This document shows, piece after piece, positions 8,805 to 19,256 of a DNA stretch of 64,000 nucleotides. The notes beneath the pieces were generated by a model, which saw only the letters and a program-made list of their open reading frames with translations, searched no databases and had not been told where the DNA came from. Positions within the stretch are counted from its first letter, which is position 1. Each line of letters begins with the position of its first letter. The translations under genes were made by a program, and so were the position numbers. This DNA comes from Streptomyces niveus (lineage in GTDB: Bacteria > Actinomycetota > Actinomycetes > Streptomycetales > Streptomycetaceae). Location: NCBI RefSeq assembly GCF_001723055.1, contig NZ_MDCR01000040.1, forward strand, positions 1-64,000, in the 5' to 3' direction.

Positions 8805-8838
8805 CGGTGGGTGAGAAGATGTAGCTTCTCACCCACCG
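8805..8838. terminator. Hairpin terminator after small membrane protein gene
   Basis: CGGTGGGTGAGAAG (8805-8818) and its exact complement (8825-8838) flank a six-base loop. It lies about 125 bases past the minus-strand gene ending at 8965. No clear T-run follows. The rest of 8582-8964 shows no gene. Confidence 0.6.
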
Positions 8839-8964: not shown

Positions 8965-9174
8965 CTACGGCTTGCCCTTTTTCTGGTTTCCTACGAACAG
9001 GAAAGTGGCAAGTGAAATACAAACGACCATGCCCAAGATCACCCAGCCGCCAGAGTTCCCCGAAATGATAAGAAATGCGGCGAGTATAACTCCGGCAATG
9101 GCAAACAGTGAAGCGAACAGCATCCAGCGCTTGACCGCTGCGCGCTGTCCGGTTGACCACCCGAGATTGGACAT
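8965..9174 (-). CDS. Two-helix membrane protein beside RHS gene, possible immunity protein
   Basis: A 69-residue protein from ATG 9174-9172 with an excellent ribosome site (GGAGGAAGA). After a basic N terminus (GQRAAVKRW) come two hydrophobic helices (residues about 17-38 and 43-62) and a lysine-rich tail, so it is an inner-membrane hairpin. It lies directly downstream of the RHS gene whose C-terminal tip is itself hydrophobic. In polymorphic toxin loci this position usually holds the immunity gene, and two-helix membrane proteins commonly protect against pore-forming tips. A strong hairpin separates the genes, so it may have separate or attenuated expression. The immunity role is inferred. 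Confidence 0.6.
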   Translation of the reverse strand: MSNLGWSTGQRAAVKRWMLFASLFAIAGVILAAFLIISGNSGGWVILGMVVCISLATFLFVGNQKKGKP

Positions 9175-9196
9175 TCTTCCTCCTAAGCATCTGTCT

Positions 9197-9230
9197 GCGG
9201 GTTGGAGAGACTTATGTCTCTCCAACCCGC
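9197..9230. terminator. Strong 15-bp hairpin between RHS and small membrane gene
   Basis: GCGGGTTGGAGAGAC (9197-9211), loop TTAT, and its exact complement (9216-9230). It ends only 21 bases after the RHS stop and lies 22 bases before the next start codon. It could terminate RHS transcription or attenuate read-through into the small gene. Confidence 0.75.
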
Positions 9231-9251
9231 AAACTCCTCATTCTGACCGAG

Positions 9252-12200
9252 CTAACCGGAAACCGCGTTGGATGCTATTTGGCCTGAACTCCATGAAATT
9301 GCGTAGCACCCCGCCGTCGCGCCCAGCGAACCACCGAGAGTTACCGGCGCTGATGCCGCAACCGCCGCTCCGCAGGCTGCGGCAGCAAGCCCCCCGACCA
9401 CGACCCCTGCTACATCTCCCCAAAGGGCCTGAGTATCTCCTTCCGCGAGGTTCTGTATTCCCGTTACCACATCGCCGACGGGACCGAGCGCGTCAAGGAA
9501 AGCCAAACCGCTCGGGTCAGTGTTGTTGACGGGGTCGCCGCCCGCGTAGAGGTAGGCGTTGGTGTCCTGGCCGGAGGGGTCGGGCTGGGTGAAGCGGCCG
9601 AGGTTGCGGTCGTAGTAGCGGGCGCCCATCTTGTAGAGGCCCGTGGGGTCGGCGTAGGCGCCGGCGAAGCGGTAGGGCTGGACGACCGTCTCGGCCAGTC
9701 CCGGGCGGGGGACTCCGGTGGGGCTGTAGTCGTAGGTGTGGGTGCGGGTGCCGGTGTCGTTGACGAGGCCGAGGATGTTGCCGGTCGCGTCGGTGAGGTA
9801 GTAGTAGCTCGCGCCCCCGGTCCTCACGGAGTTCAGGGTGCCCGCCGGTTCCCGGATGAATCCCGTGTCGGTACTTCCCGTTGTCGTACCGGACAGGCCC
9901 AGCGCCGTGGAGTGGAACCACGTACCGGCAAGCTTGGTGCGCTCGTCGTTCGTGGTGCCCGCGTGGACCAGGTCGCGTGCGGTGGCCGCAGTGGTGATGT
10001 TCGTCAACTGGCCGTGGTCGGAGAAGGTTTCACCGGTGCGGGCGGTGCCCGAGGCGGGGTCGGCGGCGGTCTCGTTGCCCGCCAGGTCGTAGGACCAGCC
10101 GGTCGTGGAGCCGTCCCGGGCGGTGAGCTGGGAGGCGTCGTTGTAGGTGTAGGTCGGGGTGGTGGGGCAGGTGGTGGCGGTCCCGCTGGTGGTGCTGGTC
10201 ATGTTGCCGGCCTTGTCGAAGCAGTACAGCCACGACGCGGTGCGGGTCCCGGCGGTGTCCGTCTCCTTGGCGTAGGTGAGGCGTTCCTGCGCGTCGTAGG
10301 TGTACGCGGTGGTCCGAACGGCGGCCTTGTCGGTGCGCGTGCGGATCTTCGTGCCGTCCGTCGCGCCGCCGGCGCCGTACCCGTACGTGTACGCCAGGTC
10401 GATGAGCGTGGCGGAGCCGGAGGCCGCCTTGATCGCGGTGGGGCGGCCGGAGTTGTCCAGGGTCACGCTCTGCGTGGTGCCGCCGGGATAGGTGGTCTTG
10501 GTGCGTTTGTCGTTGTCGTTGTACTCGTAGAGGGTGGTCTTGTTGGCGGGGTCCTTCAGCTCGGTGAGGCGCCCGGCGATGTCCCAGGTGTAGTCCGTCT
10601 TCCCGTTGGGGTCGGTGTAGTAGTCGACCTCGCCGCCCGGCGTGTACGCGAGGGCGGTCTGGGCGCCGTTCTGGAGGGTGCGCACGCTTTCACGGTTCAG
10701 CGCGTCGAAGTCCCAGCGCGTGGTGCCCGAGGCGTCCGTGCGGGAGGTCTGGTTTCCGTCACCGTCCCACGTGTAGATGACGGTGGAACTCGGCGAGGAG
10801 ATCTTCGTGACGCGGTCGCGGGAGTCGTAGACGTACACCGACTTGACACCCCGGCCGTCAGTGACGGTCTCGGGACGGCCCAACGCGTCGTACGTGTAGG
10901 TGACTTCGCCCAGCGGCGACGGCGGCTTCGCCTTCCACAGGTTGCCCTTGGTGTCGTAGGTGAACGACGTCGTCTTGCCGTTGAGGTCTTTCGCTGTGCA
11001 GCGCTGGCCCTCGAACCCGCCGCACGTCGGGGTCGCCTTGTTGTACGTGTAGTCGCGGCTGCCGCCCGCCGCCCCCGAGGTGGTCACGGAGAGCGTGTTG
11101 CCGGACGTGTCGTAGCTGAAGGTGTCCTTCTTGCCGTCCGCCGCGCTGAAATCCTTCGGCAGATCGGTGCCCGCGATCGTCTGGTACGCGGAGACGGCGG
11201 CGGTGGCGCCGGTGGGGAGCTTGGCCGAGGAGGGGTTGTTGCGGGTGTCGTAGCCGTAGGTGGTGACGTTCCCGCCCGTACCGCCGGTCCCGGTCCCCAG
11301 GGCGTCGGTCGCCGTCTGGAGGTTCCGGTTCTGATAGGTGCGTGAGCGGCTCTTCCCCCGCGGGTCGGTGACCTTGGTGATCTCACCGTCCGCGTTGTGG
11401 GTGTGGACGGTCTTGTCCCCGTCCGGGTCGGTGACCGTCGTCGTCCCGGCCGCCGACGGGGTGCCGGCGGAGTGGGCGTACGCCCAGGTCGGGCCGCCCC
11501 CGCGCCTTACGGAGGTGACGCGGTTCTGTGCGTCGTACGTGAACTCGGTGACCTTGTTCTCAGGGGTGGTGACCTTCGTCAGGCGCCGCGAGGAGTCGTA
11601 CGCGAAGTGCGTGGCCTTGCCCGCCGTGTCCGTGGTCTTGACGAGATCGCCGGCCGGGTTGAGGTCGAAGACCGCGGTGCGGCCGGTGTGATCCTTGGCC
11701 TGCCACTGCGAGGCGTTGGTCTTGAGCAGGTCGACCCAGCGTCCGGAGCGGGTCTCAGTGAGCCTGAAACCCTTGTGCTCACCGCCCTCGTCGTGCTGGG
11801 TGACGGTGATCGTGCCGTTGTTGCGGTCGGTGACCTTCGTCAGCGTGCCGTGCTCGCTGTACGTGTCCTTCGAACCGGACTTACGGCTCGTCAGGGTGTA
11901 CGTGCCGTCCGTGTTCTTCTTCAGATCCTTCGAGTACCCGGCCGGCGTGGTGAACGTCCCGTCCGCCTTCTTCACGAACCGCACCGCGTCGCCCGTCGCG
12001 TCATACACCACCACCTCGGTGGCGGTGATCTGCGCGTACCGCTCCCACCCCTGCCACCACCGCTGGGACACCTTGCCCCAGGGGGCGTCCAGCGAGTTGT
12101 ACGTACGCGCCAGCTGAAGATTCTGCCCCACGCCGGCGACATCGAAGTCCGTGGCTGCGAGCATCAGGTTCCCGTTCGACAGATTCACCCGCGCCACCAG

Positions 12201-12614
12201 CGAATCCGACAACCGTGTATCGGCGAACTGATGCCACGGCACCTGCCCCTGCCCCTGCGGCACTTCAGACTCCACGGCGGACCGGACGCCCCGCGCGGCC
12301 GGAGCGCCCGAAGCGCCACGGTCGGGCAGAGCACGTGCTTTGTCCTGCGCCGCGTACCAGGCGGAACGTTCCTGCGACGGTTCCGCCGCCGGCCGGGAAT
12401 CGGGGGCCTTCGTCGAACCCGCCTGAACCGTAGGAGCGGTCACCTTGTTGGGCGTCGTCCACGGCGAGGCGGGATCAAGCAACCGCGGCTCAGGCGCGGC
12501 GAACGCCGGCAACGACGCGGCGGCCAGGGACACGGCGGCGACAGCCGCCGTCACGGCATATCGGGTGGATCTGCGGGCACGCCGAAACGGCGTGCCGAAG
12601 GCACGTGAATGCAT
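9252..12614 (-). CDS. Secreted RHS/YD-repeat protein with hydrophobic C-terminal tip
   Basis: From ATG 12614 (GGGGGGAAG upstream) it encodes 1120 residues. A signal peptide (RRARRSTRYAVTAAVAAVSL..PAFA, cleavage near residue 39) is followed by an N-terminal DUF6531-like region (NLSNGNLMLAATDFDVAG), then many YD repeats (YDSSRRLTKV, YDAQNRVTSV, YDALGRPETV). The conserved RHS end is ARYYDRNLGRFTQPDP and NTDPSGL. RHS repeats form a cocoon around a variable C-terminal toxin. Here the last 84 residues are glycine/alanine-rich and hydrophobic (DVAGVVVGGLAAAACGAAVA) with no catalytic motif I can see, which suggests a membrane-acting tip or an unknown toxin. The next gene on the strand is a two-helix membrane protein. 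Confidence 0.85.
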   Translation of the reverse strand: MHSRAFGTPFRRARRSTRYAVTAAVAAVSLAAASLPAFAAPEPRLLDPASPWTTPNKVTAPTVQAGSTKAPDSRPAAEPSQERSAWYAAQDKARALPDRGASGAPAARGVRSAVESEVPQGQGQVPWHQFADTRLSDSLVARVNLSNGNLMLAATDFDVAGVGQNLQLARTYNSLDAPWGKVSQRWWQGWERYAQITATEVVVYDATGDAVRFVKKADGTFTTPAGYSKDLKKNTDGTYTLTSRKSGSKDTYSEHGTLTKVTDRNNGTITVTQHDEGGEHKGFRLTETRSGRWVDLLKTNASQWQAKDHTGRTAVFDLNPAGDLVKTTDTAGKATHFAYDSSRRLTKVTTPENKVTEFTYDAQNRVTSVRRGGGPTWAYAHSAGTPSAAGTTTVTDPDGDKTVHTHNADGEITKVTDPRGKSRSRTYQNRNLQTATDALGTGTGGTGGNVTTYGYDTRNNPSSAKLPTGATAAVSAYQTIAGTDLPKDFSAADGKKDTFSYDTSGNTLSVTTSGAAGGSRDYTYNKATPTCGGFEGQRCTAKDLNGKTTSFTYDTKGNLWKAKPPSPLGEVTYTYDALGRPETVTDGRGVKSVYVYDSRDRVTKISSPSSTVIYTWDGDGNQTSRTDASGTTRWDFDALNRESVRTLQNGAQTALAYTPGGEVDYYTDPNGKTDYTWDIAGRLTELKDPANKTTLYEYNDNDKRTKTTYPGGTTQSVTLDNSGRPTAIKAASGSATLIDLAYTYGYGAGGATDGTKIRTRTDKAAVRTTAYTYDAQERLTYAKETDTAGTRTASWLYCFDKAGNMTSTTSGTATTCPTTPTYTYNDASQLTARDGSTTGWSYDLAGNETAADPASGTARTGETFSDHGQLTNITTAATARDLVHAGTTNDERTKLAGTWFHSTALGLSGTTTGSTDTGFIREPAGTLNSVRTGGASYYYLTDATGNILGLVNDTGTRTHTYDYSPTGVPRPGLAETVVQPYRFAGAYADPTGLYKMGARYYDRNLGRFTQPDPSGQDTNAYLYAGGDPVNNTDPSGLAFLDALGPVGDVVTGIQNLAEGDTQALWGDVAGVVVGGLAAAACGAAVAASAPVTLGGSLGATAGCYAISWSSGQIASNAVSG

Positions 12615-15105: not shown

Positions 15106-18100
15106 TTACAGAGTCGGGGCGCACTTGATCACGTCGGCAGTACCGTCGCAGGCGTCGTAGAAGCCTTCGCCCAGGTTGATCCAGAACGGGTCCTTGTCCA
15201 CGAGCCGGTAGGTCTTGGCGAACCCGAGCCCGAACGGACTCATGGAGCCCTGGTTCATCCAGCCCGACATCGAGGAGCGCCCGCAGGTCTCGCGCCAGGT
15301 AGGGGCGGCGTACCGGCGGTCGTCCTGGAGTTTCCAGGTGGCGCCGTCCTTCAGAACGACGGTGTTGACGCACTCGCCTCCCTTGCCCGCGCCGGCGGGG
15401 TAGACGCCGTCCATGGAGGCGGGCATCCCTGCGGATTCGTAGGTGGAGGCGAAAGCGAACTCGTCACAGTTGATCCAGGACTTGGCCGTGTTGTCGCTGG
15501 GGGCCGGTGCGGTGTCCTTGTGCGCAACGAATCCGGTGATCTTCCGCTTGCCGCATACCACTGTCCGGTTGGAGTCGGGGTTGCGTCCGTGCACGTTGCG
15601 CGCCGTCTCAGGCAGATGCTTGAGCGGGTTGAGATAGGAGTCGCCGTCCAGATTGGGCAGTTTTTGCATGATCAGCCATGCGTGGGCTGCCGCACCGGGG
15701 TACTTCTTCACGTTCATCGAGTAGCCGGCGGCATACTCGGGGAACACGCAGCCGTCCGGGGAGCGCACCTTGTCGCAGCGCGCGTGCAGGTCGGTTTCCA
15801 TCATGTAGTCCCCGAGGTCTGTATCGGGGACCGCGGAGGACTTGGCGTTGACGTACCAGTTCAGGTTCAGCGGCTCGGTGTTGTCCTTGTCCTTGCCCGA
15901 CGCCGGAGAGGCGATGCCGTCCCAGGGGAGGGTGACGGTGCCGGTCTGCTCGTGCACATCGGCAGGCCCGGTCCAGGCGAGCGGCCCGTCCCAGTCGATG
16001 TCACCGTTGGTGCAACCCACCGCACAGTTCGCGGTGATCTTCAAGGTGACGGTGCCGACCGCCGGGGACTGGAAGCCCTTGGTGACCGAGAGGCGCTGCT
16101 GGATCTCTCCCTTGTCGGGCATCGCCTTCACCTGCCGGATGATGCGGAACTCGGTGTACCCGATGTAGGCGTTGTTCTTCCATACGCGTTGGATGAGGTC
16201 GGTGCCGAGGCACGCTTCGAAGCGGTTGTACAGGCCCAGTCCCTGATCCTGCCCGTTCTCGTTCTTGCACCAGGACACCAACTGCCCGTCGGCGAATGTC
16301 GTGGCTGGGGTCTTCCCGGCGATCCCGCGCGTGGTGCCCTTGGTGTCCTTCTCCCTCACGCTCGTGGTAGCGATGCAGGTGGTGGTCTCACCACTGGTCT
16401 TGCAGTCCTTGAAGTCCGAAGGCTTCTTCTTCTCGTCGGTGTTCACACCGAATCCCGCGGGTTCTGGGTCGCCGAGGTCAACGGTGCCCAGGTAGTTGGG
16501 GATCGCGATGGGCTCGCTCACGTGCGCGGGGTCGGGCGCTGCCTCGTTCGGGGCAGGCAGGGTGATGTCGACCTTGTTCGCCCGCCCCGTATCGGCACCA
16601 CCAGCGATGAATCCGTACTCGGTGATCGCGGAGACGTTGTCCGAGGTGTCGACGGTGCGCACCTGCACATCTTGCGCTCCGCCCTCTGCCGGGGTGGCGT
16701 TGAACGCTGCGGTGGCAGCGCCGATGGCGGTGGCAACGTTGTTCCACGTTCCGGAGTCACCGGTGCCGTCGTCGTTGGTGTCCTCTGGGTTCAGACGCCA
16801 CTGCACCGTGTTGTGGTCGCCACCGGACGGCAGGTCGACGTTGAACGTGCCGGCGGTGTTGGCTCCGCCGCCGACCCAGCCCTCGGGATAGGTGGAGGAG
16901 GAGACCTTCGTAGCTGTCGCCGGTGCGGTGGTGTCGACGACGAACTGCGTCCACGGTGACCAGTTGAGGTTGTAGTGGGTGCCGTCGTAGGCGTTGGTGC
17001 GGAACTTGTACGTCTTGCCGTCCTTGAGCTGTCCGGCCGGGACGGTGACGGAGGCGGGCTTGCCCGCGGCGACGAAGCCCGACACGAGCAGGCCCTCACC
17101 GGCCGGGGTGGTGATGGGGGTGTCGGTGGCGGCGTCGTAGACCTGGAATGTGCCGTTGACGGTGTCCCCGTCGGCGTCGGCGAAGGTGTCCCGCAGGGTC
17201 GGGGCCGTCGTGTTGACCGCCCACACGCCCGCGTACGACTTGAACGGCGCGCCGGCCTGCCGGTCCGTGCCGTCGGACGGGCGGTAGTTGTAGGTGACGG
17301 ACAGCTTGGGCTGGTTGGCCGTGTTGTTGGCGGAGTTGACGCGCTTCCACGCCCTGGTGTCGTCGGTGACCGCGCGCAGGCCCATGAAGCCGCGCGTCGC
17401 CTTGGCGGACGCCCAGGACTGGACGAGGGCGTCGACGTCGGCGTTGATCCACCCGTCGGGCTGGGCGGCGCAGTCCGGGCTGCCCTTGGTCTGCGTGGAG
17501 GAGTGGTACTGCTGGTTCCAGGTGGGCTGGTTCGTCCACCTGGACGAGGTGGATGCCGCGGTGGTGTCCCAGACGGTCCACTCCTGTGCGGTGCAGTCGG
17601 TGTTGCCGGAGTGGAAGTTCCACAGCGCCAGGTTGGTGTCGACGATCAGCGCGTCCTGGATCGGGGTGGTGTTCCAGTGGATGAACGAGCGTGCGCTGCG
17701 CGGGGTGCCGTCGGGGTTCTTGGTGCCGGGGTTGCCGAGGTCGAGTTCGACGTCGTTCGACCAGTCGACGGTCTCGCCCTGCTGGACGTAGGTGTCGAAG
17801 GTGCTCGCCAGGGCGGAGGTGGAGGGGTCGACCGTGACCGGGAACTTCGTGTCCGGGTCGGCGAGGAAGCCGGCGTCGGGGGTGACGACCAGGTTGACCT
17901 GGCCGGCGCCCTTGTCGATGACCTTCATGTCGACGCGGGCGCGGTTGGTGTGCTCGCCGGAGCGCTTGTCGACTGCGGAGTCCCACATGACGGGCGCCGG
18001 CATGGTGGCGCGGGCGGCGCCGGTCCTGGCATCGGTGAAGGTGACCGAACCGTCCTTGTTCGCCTTCGCCTTCAGCCCCTTGGCCTTGACGGGGAGGGTG

Positions 18101-18810
18101 TAGGCGTAGGCGCCGGTGGGCCGCTCGCCGATCTCCACGAACTGCTCGAAGCCGGTACGGGTGGCCTCGACGATCACATCGGCGCCGGGCACGGCGTTCT
18201 TGTAGCGGGCGTGGGTGCCGTCCAGTTCGGGCTTCGGCAGACCGCCCTTCCACTGGAGCGTCACCGCGCTGTCGCCGCTGCCCAGGGTGACCAGATCACG
18301 GGCGGTGTCCGCCTGCCCGGCGCGCAGCGACTTCGGCAGGGTGCCGCTCTTGCCGCCCAGACGAAGGCCGTTGGGGTGTGCCCGCGAGGCGATGCTTCCG
18401 TCGGCGGCCTCGGTGAGGGTGGCGTCGGCCTTCTTCCACGCGCCGTTCTTCCAGACCCGCTCGGGGCCGGCGGTGAGTTCGGTGGTCAGGGTGCCGTCCG
18501 GGTTGGCGACGGTGTACGTGGTGGGAGTCGTCTCGTCGGTGGCGACGGTCTTCTTCCCGGTCTTCTTCGCCCGGGTGAGGGCCCAGGCGATCGAGCCCTT
18601 CGTGTGCTTGGCCGCCCAGGCCAGGTCCGACTCCCAGATCTCCTGCTCGGAGGGACCGACCGGCTCGGCCTGCTCGGTTCGCGGTTCGGCAACCGGTGCT
18701 GCCGACGCGCTGCCGCCCGCGACGAGCGCGGCCTCGGCCACCAGGAGCAGCGCCGCCCCAGCCGCGAAGCGCGCCCTGCGACGTGACGCCTGTTGTCTGT
18801 GTGAAGACAC
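15106..18810 (-). CDS. Secreted DNRLRE-domain protein with C-terminal NucA/NucB nuclease
   Basis: I start it at GTG 18810 (GGGAAGGA ten bases upstream), giving about 1234 residues; an in-frame GTG at 18846 is less well placed. A signal peptide (RRRARFAAGAALLLVAEAAL..GGSASA) leads to a region with WKKADATLTEAADGS, then a DNRLRE-like beta domain (TFDTYVQQG, SARSFIHWNTTPI, KLSVTYNY) and fibronectin-like linkers. The last 150 residues hold SWINCDEFAFASTYESAG, the signature of NucA/NucB DNases (Cys-Asp-Glu followed by Phe-Ala-Ser-Thr). It is a large exported protein that presents a DNase at its C terminus, as in polymorphic toxins. No immunity gene is evident: downstream is a terminator, upstream a gene-free gap. 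Confidence 0.8.
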   Translation of the reverse strand: MSSHRQQASRRRARFAAGAALLLVAEAALVAGGSASAAPVAEPRTEQAEPVGPSEQEIWESDLAWAAKHTKGSIAWALTRAKKTGKKTVATDETTPTTYTVANPDGTLTTELTAGPERVWKNGAWKKADATLTEAADGSIASRAHPNGLRLGGKSGTLPKSLRAGQADTARDLVTLGSGDSAVTLQWKGGLPKPELDGTHARYKNAVPGADVIVEATRTGFEQFVEIGERPTGAYAYTLPVKAKGLKAKANKDGSVTFTDARTGAARATMPAPVMWDSAVDKRSGEHTNRARVDMKVIDKGAGQVNLVVTPDAGFLADPDTKFPVTVDPSTSALASTFDTYVQQGETVDWSNDVELDLGNPGTKNPDGTPRSARSFIHWNTTPIQDALIVDTNLALWNFHSGNTDCTAQEWTVWDTTAASTSSRWTNQPTWNQQYHSSTQTKGSPDCAAQPDGWINADVDALVQSWASAKATRGFMGLRAVTDDTRAWKRVNSANNTANQPKLSVTYNYRPSDGTDRQAGAPFKSYAGVWAVNTTAPTLRDTFADADGDTVNGTFQVYDAATDTPITTPAGEGLLVSGFVAAGKPASVTVPAGQLKDGKTYKFRTNAYDGTHYNLNWSPWTQFVVDTTAPATATKVSSSTYPEGWVGGGANTAGTFNVDLPSGGDHNTVQWRLNPEDTNDDGTGDSGTWNNVATAIGAATAAFNATPAEGGAQDVQVRTVDTSDNVSAITEYGFIAGGADTGRANKVDITLPAPNEAAPDPAHVSEPIAIPNYLGTVDLGDPEPAGFGVNTDEKKKPSDFKDCKTSGETTTCIATTSVREKDTKGTTRGIAGKTPATTFADGQLVSWCKNENGQDQGLGLYNRFEACLGTDLIQRVWKNNAYIGYTEFRIIRQVKAMPDKGEIQQRLSVTKGFQSPAVGTVTLKITANCAVGCTNGDIDWDGPLAWTGPADVHEQTGTVTLPWDGIASPASGKDKDNTEPLNLNWYVNAKSSAVPDTDLGDYMMETDLHARCDKVRSPDGCVFPEYAAGYSMNVKKYPGAAAHAWLIMQKLPNLDGDSYLNPLKHLPETARNVHGRNPDSNRTVVCGKRKITGFVAHKDTAPAPSDNTAKSWINCDEFAFASTYESAGMPASMDGVYPAGAGKGGECVNTVVLKDGATWKLQDDRRYAAPTWRETCGRSSMSGWMNQGSMSPFGLGFAKTYRLVDKDPFWINLGEGFYDACDGTADVIKCAPTL

Positions 18811-19256
18811 GAAGCGTGTGTCCTTCCCTGTAGAGAAATGCGACACGTGTACGAATGCGTGTCACGAGGGCAGGACATTACGCAGAAGCAGCATTCAGGC
18901 ACAGGCGGTTATCGGCCGTGGCTCACAACCGTTCCAGCAGGCCCGCGAGTTGAAGCCGAACCCTGCCGTCAAACGCGGCAATGATCACATCGGCCGACCC
19001 ACACGCTCAGCCGGAACGCCGTGCCGCAAAGCCCACGGAGTCCGCTGAAGACAGGCACCCGCGCGGCTGCGGCAGGGACGGCCTCCACTCCGCGAGGATG
19101 AAGCCGCCGGCGGCCAGGGCGGTCGGCCCGCGTTCGGTCTTGACCATGCCGATCGCGTCGCCGAGCCAGAGCCTGCCCGCGGCCGCGACCCGCGCCAGGT
19201 GCGCTGCGAGACGCGCGCGTGATCAGGGCACGCCGACACAGGACCAGGCTCACGTG
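18811..19256. other. Intergenic region
   Basis: About 446 bases between two minus-strand genes. It must hold the promoter of the secreted nuclease gene. Open frames here are shadows or C-terminal overlaps. No repeat or RNA gene is seen. Confidence 0.4.

What the first reader, a model, noticed from the sequence alone, without database searches (positions are those of the whole stretch)
8965..12614. RHS protein with hydrophobic tip and adjacent two-helix membrane protein: possible pore-toxin/immunity pair
The 84 residues after the RHS PxxxxDPSGL end are Gly/Ala-rich and hydrophobic, with no enzyme motif. The next gene is a 69-residue membrane hairpin with its own excellent ribosome site. A perfect 15-bp hairpin lies between them and another 14-bp hairpin follows, so the small gene is a separate cassette. 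This fits an undescribed membrane-acting tip with cognate immunity, exported by the Sec-type signal peptide rather than a T6SS.
Basis: partly seen in the sequence, partly recalled or inferred. Interest (0 to 1): 0.65.

Follow-up and report, generated by a model that had tools for sequence, protein, structure and literature searches.

The report
Caged membrane toxin with matched immunity
A secreted Streptomyces cage protein ends in a short greasy peptide with two conserved cysteines, and the tiny membrane protein gene beside it is its evolving partner, which points to a membrane-attacking toxin and its antidote used against rival bacteria, though toxicity itself was not tested.

Summary
A 1,120-residue RHS protein with a signal-like N-terminus (12614..9252, minus) ends in an 83-residue Gly/Ala-rich tip, followed by a 69-residue two-helix membrane protein (9174..8965) with its own AGGAGG site. 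Comparison with related Streptomyces loci supports toxin/immunity. Of 74 intact-length tips of close RHS relatives, 70 are followed at once by a small membrane-protein ORF, against 2 of 134 control genes. Tip and partner identities co-vary (r=0.55, 0 of 5000 permutations); tip and core do not (r=0.055). Partner genes also occur in islands; in one, four successive genes match partners of four different tip clusters. The hairpins are near ordinary. Closest known: the T6SS-delivered RHS pore toxin Tse5 with two-helix Tsi5; SDP/SdpI of Bacillus is a functional parallel. Export, toxicity, pore and disulfide are inferred. New variant of a known kind.

The parts
9252..12614 (-). RHS protein gene, 1,120 aa, starting at ATG
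   Evidence: Pfam RHS_repeat 6.5e-49; NCBIfam Rhs_assc_core 2.8e-20
12495..12614 (-). Sec-type signal peptide (about residues 1-40: Arg-rich, then hydrophobic, then AFA-AP)
   Evidence: sequence; comparable N-termini in the 8 full-length homologues examined. No signal-peptide predictor was run
11976..12188 (-). DUF6531 domain, residues 143-213
   Evidence: E 1.3e-9
9735..12227 (-). YD-repeat shell, about residues 130-960, predicted beta
   Evidence: AlphaFold2 and Foldseek against solved RHS cages
9507..9581 (-). DPSG-X17-DPSG (residues 1012-1036), the aspartyl self-cleavage motif of RHS proteins
   Evidence: DPxG-X17-DPxG in 72 of 74 ends, the window's included; role from Tse5 (PMC10684867 passages)
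9255..9503 (-). C-terminal tip, 83 residues (1038-1120), Gly/Ala-rich, three predicted helices
9372..9374 (-). Cys44 of the tip (residue 1081), invariant in the 12-sequence tip alignment A4
9306..9308 (-). Cys66 of the tip (residue 1103), invariant in A4; proposed disulfide partner of Cys44
   Evidence: even-cysteine rule
9196..9231 (-). 16-bp perfect hairpin between tip and small gene
   Evidence: role unknown, a stem of 9 bp or more in 22 of 74 relatives
9179..9184 (-). AGGAGG ribosome-binding site of the small gene
   Evidence: read
8965..9174 (-). P0002, 69-aa membrane protein with two hydrophobic helices: proposed immunity protein
   Evidence: homologues; pairing
8805..8838 (-). 14-bp perfect hairpin downstream of the small gene, possible terminator

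Best explanation
A polymorphic RHS toxin with its immunity gene. The RHS protein is exported by the general secretory route (inferred from its N-terminus). Its beta cage keeps the hydrophobic tip away from the producer's membrane (inferred from solved RHS cages), and the aspartyl motif cuts the tip free after DPSGL (motif shown, cutting inferred). Outside the cell the two cysteines close a disulfide that staples two helices into a hairpin (inferred from the even-cysteine rule). On meeting a related competitor the tip enters the cytoplasmic membrane and, helped by small-residue helix packing, depolarises it (inferred). The 69-residue membrane protein sits in the producer's membrane and blocks the incoming matching tip (pairing and co-divergence shown, protection inferred). 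Other strains keep copies of such small genes in islands as protection against rivals' tips (islands shown, purpose inferred).
For: (1) Pairing: 70 of 74 tips have an adjacent small membrane-protein ORF versus 2 of 134 control genes; in the 55 brought in by core similarity, 50 of 55; of seven further intact ends missed by the pattern, five. (2) Co-divergence: tip/partner identity r=0.552, 0 of 5000 permutations, n=69; within the window tip's cluster r=0.619, 0 of 5000, n=14; tip versus the last 130 core residues r=0.055. (3) Tip swapping: 196 locus pairs have core ends over 80% identical but tips under 30%. (4) Specific pairing: P0002 finds 13 of 14 partners in its tip cluster (itself included) at E<=1e-5 and 1 of 55 others; at E<=1e-3, 13 of 14 and 3 of 55. 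The one at 1e-5 sits behind a broken relative of the same tip (L048_62). (5) Islands: in G314 four successive membrane-protein genes match the partners of four different tip clusters at 55-89% identity, after a broken RHS end; P0002-like genes lie as an extra gene behind RHS genes with their own partner in G029, G599, G602, G688 and G533, and without RHS signatures in the 8.5-12 kb fetched around them in G605, G072, G178:C154, G066 and G325. (6) Short or interrupted tips with an intact partner: L012, L051, L086_58, L121, L153, L048_62, L152. (7) Even cysteines: 0, 2 or 4 in 74 of 74 tips and 7 of 7 further ones; the last 90 core residues have none in 68 of 69; 28 of 28 clusters even, simulation maximum 26 in 200,000 runs. 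(8) DPxG-X17-DPxG in 72 of 74. (9) Precedent: Tse5-CT depolarises cells and Tsi5, with two predicted transmembrane regions, protects (PMC9637101 passages).
Against: No toxicity or binding was measured. Intact-looking tips without a membrane ORF: L122 and L144 (none within 600 nt), L132 (only a doubtful one), L128 and L135 (none within 250 nt). One of the 14 partners in the window tip's cluster (L124, start probably mis-chosen) is not found by P0002. Only 36 of 74 tips contain a 19-residue segment above Kyte-Doolittle 1.6 (60 of 74 above 1.3), and two singletons (L113, L147) are hydrophilic overall, so membrane action is less certain for part of the family. Six of the 74 tips have no cysteine. 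The clusters are not all independent: the window tip alone finds tips of seven other clusters at E<=1e-3; merging these leaves 21 groups, all even. Broken or read-through ends do show odd counts. Glycine-zipper motifs occur in 65 of 74 tips, but composition-shuffled tips give 56.9 with sd 3.4. AlphaFold2 confidence is low: 57.6 for the tip, 58.1 for the whole protein. Tip and partner profiles match no solved chain at E<=1.
Confidence: 0.8

Rival explanations
1. The tip is a membrane anchor for the RHS cage, and the small protein is a matching docking or export helper, not immunity. Tip and partner would co-vary because they bind each other.
For: Hydrophobic Gly/Ala-rich tip and membrane partner co-vary; no toxicity shown.
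Against: Partner genes persist in islands with no RHS signature in the fetched stretch and next to broken tips; one genome carries partners of four different tip clusters in a row; tips are swapped wholesale on near-identical cores. A helper would have no use without its RHS protein.
Confidence: 0.08
2. The tip is a kin-recognition or signalling peptide and the small protein is its receptor, with no killing.
For: Matched, polymorphic, disulfide-type extracellular peptides with membrane partners would also look like this.
Against: The 69-residue partner has no room for a signalling domain; islands of several different partners without intact tips fit immunity better than reception.
Confidence: 0.06
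3. The tip acts on the envelope by binding a specific membrane protein or wall-synthesis component rather than by forming a pore; the small protein still gives immunity.
For: Many tips are only moderately hydrophobic and two singletons are hydrophilic; CDI ionophores need membrane receptor proteins (PMC11630599 abstract).
Against: The window tip is predicted, at low confidence, to have three helices, two of them the hydrophobic pair, with two glycine-zipper matches; its partner is nearly all membrane helix.
Confidence: 0.25
4. Chance neighbour: the small gene is unrelated to the RHS gene.
For: A 77-bp gap with a strong hairpin and a separate ribosome site.
Against: 70 of 74 versus 2 of 134 controls; co-divergence 0 of 5000; specific match of P0002 to its own tip cluster.
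Confidence: 0.01

Closest known systems
Tse5/Tsi5 of Pseudomonas aeruginosa (RHS pore-forming toxin and two-helix immunity protein; PMC9637101 and PMC10684867, passages seen)
   Same: RHS cage with a DPxG...DPxG motif, short membrane-active C-terminus without enzyme motif, two-helix membrane immunity protein
   Different: Here a signal-like N-terminus and no T6SS domain; tip 83 residues with an invariant cysteine pair (Tse5-CT is residues 1169-1317); spacer X17 rather than X19; no tip or partner match in the PDB sequence searches; many alternative tips in one family
SDP/SdpI and YIT/YitQ of Bacillus subtilis (PMC6818787, passages seen)
   Same: Secreted precursor whose C-terminal hydrophobic part is released as toxin; SDP collapses the proton motive force; specific membrane immunity protein
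   Different: No RHS cage; processing needs SdpA and SdpB; P0002 matches the SdpI profile only at noise level (13.3 bits against a cut-off of 28.2)
EsxX with ExiCD of Staphylococcus aureus T7SS (PMC12744356, passages seen)
   Same: Glycine-zipper C-terminus that depolarises; membrane immunity proteins against the extracellular form; orphan immunity genes in islands
   Different: T7SS LXG export; a separate soluble pair, ExiAB, protects the producer's cytoplasm, a job the RHS cage would do here
CDI ionophore toxins and CdiI (PMC11630599, abstract and section 8 read)
   Same: Polymorphic depolarising toxins diverging together with their immunity proteins
   Different: CdiA scaffold, here described for E. 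coli; five-helix bundles with receptor-binding entry domains
Tox-WTIP and Imm17 (Zhang et al. 2012, PMC3482391; section 36 read, other passages seen)
   Same: Two-helix predicted pore-forming tip on RHS-type toxins; two-helix immunity protein family
   Different: Tox-WTIP has RxxR and W-TIP and was restricted to proteobacteria; the window tip has no Arg and no TIP; P0002 lacks WxW

Membership tests
RHS polymorphic toxin proteins | YD/RHS repeats forming a cage | tested here: met
   RHS_repeat 6.5e-49; predicted beta shell with Foldseek hits to RhsA, Tse5, RhsP and Tse15 (TM-scores normalised to the query 0.20-0.42 for these RHS cages, low model confidence)
RHS polymorphic toxin proteins | Conserved core end with aspartyl self-cleavage motif DPxG...DPxG | tested here: met
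   Rhs_assc_core 2.8e-20; motif in the window and in 72 of 74 ends overall. Cleavage itself not testable
RHS polymorphic toxin proteins | Variable C-terminal tip on a conserved core | tested here: met
   196 locus pairs with core end >80% and tip <30% identity
RHS polymorphic toxin proteins | Immunity gene directly downstream, matched to the tip | tested here: met
   70 of 74 adjacent, co-divergence 0 of 5000; that it gives immunity was not tested
RHS polymorphic toxin proteins | Tip is toxic and neutralised by the neighbour | not testable with these tools
   bench work needed
Tse5/Tsi5 (T6SS RHS pore toxin) | T6SS-type N-terminus | tested here: not met
   Arg-rich signal-like N-terminus; no T6SS domain for P0001 in Pfam or NCBIfam at E<=1
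Tse5/Tsi5 (T6SS RHS pore toxin) | Tip sequence related to Tse5-CT | tested here: inconclusive
   tip profile finds no PDB chain at E<=1; the best-scoring stretch against Tse5 chain 8cp6_B is shell residues 323-692, but its CT may be absent from the deposited chains
Tse5/Tsi5 (T6SS RHS pore toxin) | Two-helix membrane immunity protein | tested here: met
   segments of KD 2.82 and 2.41 in P0002; an architectural match only, Tsi5 sequence not compared
SdpI immunity family (PF13630) | Profile score above the curated cut-off | tested here: not met
   13.3 bits versus 28.2; 3 of 11 members hit at E<=1, like several unrelated membrane families
Tox-WTIP | RxxR in helix 1 and W-TIP in helix 2 | tested here: not met
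   no Arg and no TIP in the tip; motif from PMC3482391 section 36
Imm17 | Two TM helices with WxW | tested here: not met
   two helices but no WxW in P0002 and no Imm17 among its Pfam hits at E<=1; the definition was seen only in part

The most novel reading that the evidence does not exclude
Streptomyces has a dedicated lineage of RHS weapons whose variable tips, in about 20 or more sequence groups, are mostly disulfide-stapled membrane peptides, each paired with its own miniature membrane immunity protein and countered by mixed immunity islands. In effect it is a large family of cage-delivered bacteriocins exported by Sec without a dedicated secretion machine, with extracellular oxidation finishing the peptide after export.
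Probability: 0.5. Interest if true: 0.75.

Novelty: new variant of a known kind. Interest (0 to 1): 0.62.

Why it matters
RHS proteins are best known as cages for enzymes or, in T6SS, for a pore former such as Tse5. Here one Streptomyces RHS lineage appears specialised for membrane-acting tips, with an even-cysteine rule that holds across many tip groups. If true, it adds a protein-based, self-recognising weapon to a genus known for small-molecule antibiotics, supplies many matched membrane peptide/immunity pairs for studying how a two-helix protein can block a membrane peptide, and makes delivery of a membrane toxin through Sec in a single-membrane bacterium directly testable.

Tried and rejected
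SdpI membership of P0002: the weak Pfam hit (E 0.096) looked attractive because SDP is a hydrophobic C-terminal toxin, but 11 relatives gave equally weak hits to many unrelated membrane families. Kept as a comparison only.

Hairpin as a cassette marker: rejected, because stems of 9 bp or more occur in 22 of 74 RHS genes and 17 of 134 control genes.

Glycine zipper as proof of a pore: weak evidence only, since shuffled tips give nearly as many matches.

First clustering of tips by permissive BLAST lumped 72 of 74 into one cluster; replaced by global identity with average linkage at 35%, above the 99th percentile (0.333) of shuffled pairs. At 30% there are 18 clusters and at 40% 38; every member count is even at each level.

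First reading of genome-search loci assumed they were oriented to the match. They were not, so the minus-strand rows were wrong and were redone.

Rows dropped: six of 80 RHS ends were set aside for tip length under 45 or over 130 residues (L117_18, L121_22, L153_51, L086_58, L051_64, L012_70); three of these have odd cysteine counts (1, 1 and 5). The 74 kept still include one clearly broken tip (L048_62) and one doubtful one (L127_28), both even. Five tips without a partner under the first rule (69 of 74) were left out of the co-divergence test, so n=69; one search gives 70 of 74 because starts were chosen inside the narrower range. Partner starts were picked by rule and a few (L124, L078, L077) are probably mis-chosen.

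Also missed were broken or irregular ends (L072, L109, L126/L149, L145, L146, L148, L150, L151, one in L137), some with odd counts. These are not in the 74. Loci brought in by tip or partner similarity were not re-scanned. Of the rows, nearly all weak ones (about 1e-12 to 1e-18, mostly longer RHS proteins) were not looked at; the one read, G000:C598, has a different kind of tip. So the rules stated hold for close relatives of this RHS protein only.

Plasmid search: tip none, P0002 one record. PADLOC: no hit. The Python box holds no model files, so the Cys-Cys distance could not be measured. In one search two phmmer stretches (9pt5_A, 8fjp_A) run into the tip, to residues 1097 and 1101; they were not followed up.

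Literature: no listed title in the searches was recognised as describing this RHS family (open-access PMC library only; listings cut at the number shown; full texts not read apart from the passages and sections cited).
Full report
What is in the window. On the minus strand, 12614..9252 encodes a 1,120-residue RHS protein with an Arg-rich, then hydrophobic, signal-like N-terminus, a DUF6531 region, RHS repeats and a standard RHS core end. After PVNNTDPSGL come 83 residues that are Gly/Ala-rich and carry two cysteines. Seventy-seven bases on, after a 16-bp hairpin, starts a 69-residue protein (9174..8965) with AGGAGG four bases upstream and two hydrophobic helices. Neither tip nor small protein reaches a Pfam or NCBIfam cut-off, and their profiles match no solved chain at E<=1.

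Sampling (own genome counted throughout). The tip was sought in 343 genomes of the genus (21 with a match), the small protein in 343 (12 with a match), the small-protein profile in 394 of the family (18), the tip profile in 296 of the class (4), and the tip pattern in genome contigs (13 loci). To sample tips without choosing by tip, the RHS core was used in 120 relatives (15 with a match at 1e-20) and in 323 genomes of the genus (65 at 1e-12). Loci or stretches were taken for part of those rows: mainly the strong ones, hardly any of the weak rows, which are mostly longer RHS proteins. From all loci, 80 distinct RHS ends were extracted by a pattern; 74 had tips of 45-130 residues.

Pairing. A small ORF with at least one hydrophobic segment starts within -40..+150 nt of the tip's stop in 70 of 74 cases; the same rule gives 2 of 134 long genes in 400 kb of two related genomes; asking for two segments and at most 130 residues gives 43 of 74 and 0 of 134. 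For the 55 tips brought in by core similarity it is 50 of 55, and for the seven missed ends 5 of 7. In the window tip's own cluster all 14 tips have such a partner, and a search with P0002 finds 13 of these 14, itself included, at E<=1e-5 but 1 of 55 partners of other tips, that one behind a broken relative of the same tip. Exceptions: L122 and L144 have no membrane ORF within 600 nt, L132 only a doubtful one, L128 and L135 none within 250 nt.

Co-divergence and swapping. Over 69 loci, tip identity and partner identity correlate at 0.552 (0 of 5000 permutations), and within the window's cluster at 0.619 (0 of 5000, n=14). Tip identity and identity of the last 130 core residues do not correlate (0.055). 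196 locus pairs have core ends more than 80% identical and tips less than 30% identical. This is the signature of exchange of a tip/partner unit.

Islands and decay. P0002-like genes lie as an extra gene behind RHS genes that have their own partner in G029, G599, G602, G688 (whose tip is a relative of the window's) and G533, and without RHS signatures in the 8.5-12 kb fetched around them in G605, G072, G178:C154, G066 and G325. In G314, after a broken RHS end, four membrane-protein genes in succession match the partners of four different tip clusters at 55-89% identity. Short or interrupted tips beside an intact partner are seen in L012, L051, L086_58, L121, L153, L048_62 and L152. Retention of the partner without a working tip is what immunity predicts and what a docking helper would not. 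Three array or island genes (G066_3, G113_a, G113_c) matched no partner in the set, and G178b_2 and G113_b only at E 0.003 and 0.002.

The cysteine rule. Tip cysteine counts are 0 (6 tips), 2 (58) and 4 (10): even in 74 of 74. The last 90 residues of the core have none in 68 of 69. Partners show mixed parity: 0 in 34, 1 in 23, 2 in 8, 3 in 4. The seven missed intact ends have 2 or 4. Grouping tips at 35% identity gives 28 clusters, all even; a binomial simulation with the same cysteine frequency expected 14.3 even clusters and never exceeded 26 of 28 in 200,000 runs. The clusters are not fully independent: the window tip alone finds tips of seven other clusters at E<=1e-3. Merging those eight leaves 21 groups, still all even. 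The core-sampled subset is 55 of 55 even in 26 clusters. Broken or read-through ends do include odd counts. The simplest reading is that most tips form disulfides, which fits a peptide that works outside the cytoplasm. This is an inference from counts; no disulfide was observed.

Structure. AlphaFold2 predicts three helices in the tip (2-21, 24-51, 56-82), with Cys44 and Cys66 on the second and third helix, on either side of their turn, at low confidence (57.6). In the full-length model (58.1) a beta shell spans about residues 130-960 and the tip again has three helices. Foldseek finds RHS cages (RhsA, Tse5, RhsP, Tse15) and teneurins, with low global TM-scores. The DPxG-X17-DPxG motif precedes the tip in 72 of 74; in Tse5 the corresponding motif is DPXGX19DPXG and its aspartates are needed to cut the toxin free (PMC10684867 passages).

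Most likely mechanism. Export by Sec, cage protection, self-cleavage, extracellular oxidation, insertion of a stapled helical hairpin into a competitor's membrane, depolarisation, and neutralisation at the membrane by the 69-residue partner. Shown here: anatomy, pairing, co-divergence, swapping, islands, cysteine parity and motif conservation. Inferred: export, cleavage, disulfide, toxicity, pore and protection. Limits: only 36 of 74 tips have a segment above 1.6 (60 of 74 above 1.3), two singletons are hydrophilic, and a four-cysteine cluster of nine tips is hardly hydrophobic (mean 0.05), so 'pore' may not hold for the whole family.

Known relatives. An RHS pore toxin with a two-helix membrane immunity protein is established for Tse5/Tsi5 (PMC9637101 passages). 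Depolarising C-termini with membrane immunity and orphan immunity genes are established for EsxX/ExiCD (PMC12744356 passages). Secreted precursors with a C-terminal hydrophobic toxin and membrane immunity are established for SDP/SdpI and, by genetics, YIT/YitQ (PMC6818787 passages). Tox-WTIP is a predicted two-helix pore-forming tip of proteobacteria (PMC3482391 section 36). The present system joins features of these but does not meet the tests for T6SS delivery, Tox-WTIP, Imm17 or SdpI. In the searches made no listed title was recognised as describing it; the library is open-access only. Verdict: a new variant of a known kind, with a regularity worth a bench test.

Noticed in passing
window 15106-18846 (-): A 1,246-aa exported-looking protein with a DNRLRE domain (NCBIfam NF033679, 3.1e-14) is encoded upstream of the RHS gene on the same strand; no Pfam match at 1e-3.
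   Followed up: partly
G000:C598, locus L158 (another RHS gene of the same genome): A longer RHS protein (open frame 2,626 aa) whose end looks Hint-like and nuclease-like (recalled resemblance, no call) and whose nearest downstream ORF encodes a 117-aa protein without a hydrophobic segment: a contrast to the membrane-tip family.
   Followed up: partly
L153:5256-6911 (G314): Island of four successive two-helix membrane-protein genes, each matching the partner of a different tip cluster.
   Followed up: yes
L137 (G113:C299) and L139 (G135:C66): Five and four RHS core matches on one contig stretch, with many small membrane-protein ORFs between them, like orphan tip/immunity cassettes.
   Followed up: partly
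L065, L120, L122, L126, L130, L131, L134, L139, L038: A cluster of nine four-cysteine tips (95-105 aa) that are hardly hydrophobic; several are followed by one-helix partners of 42-51 aa, some with a PDGPxW motif. L075, L128 and one in L137 look alike. Possibly a different, beta-type tip.
   Followed up: no
L051, L015/L152 and L137: Natural frames in which an altered tip runs on into partner sequence.
   Followed up: partly
L113 and L147: Tips that are hydrophilic overall (KD -0.68 and -0.35) yet have two cysteines and a membrane partner, so the class may not be purely pore-forming.
   Followed up: no
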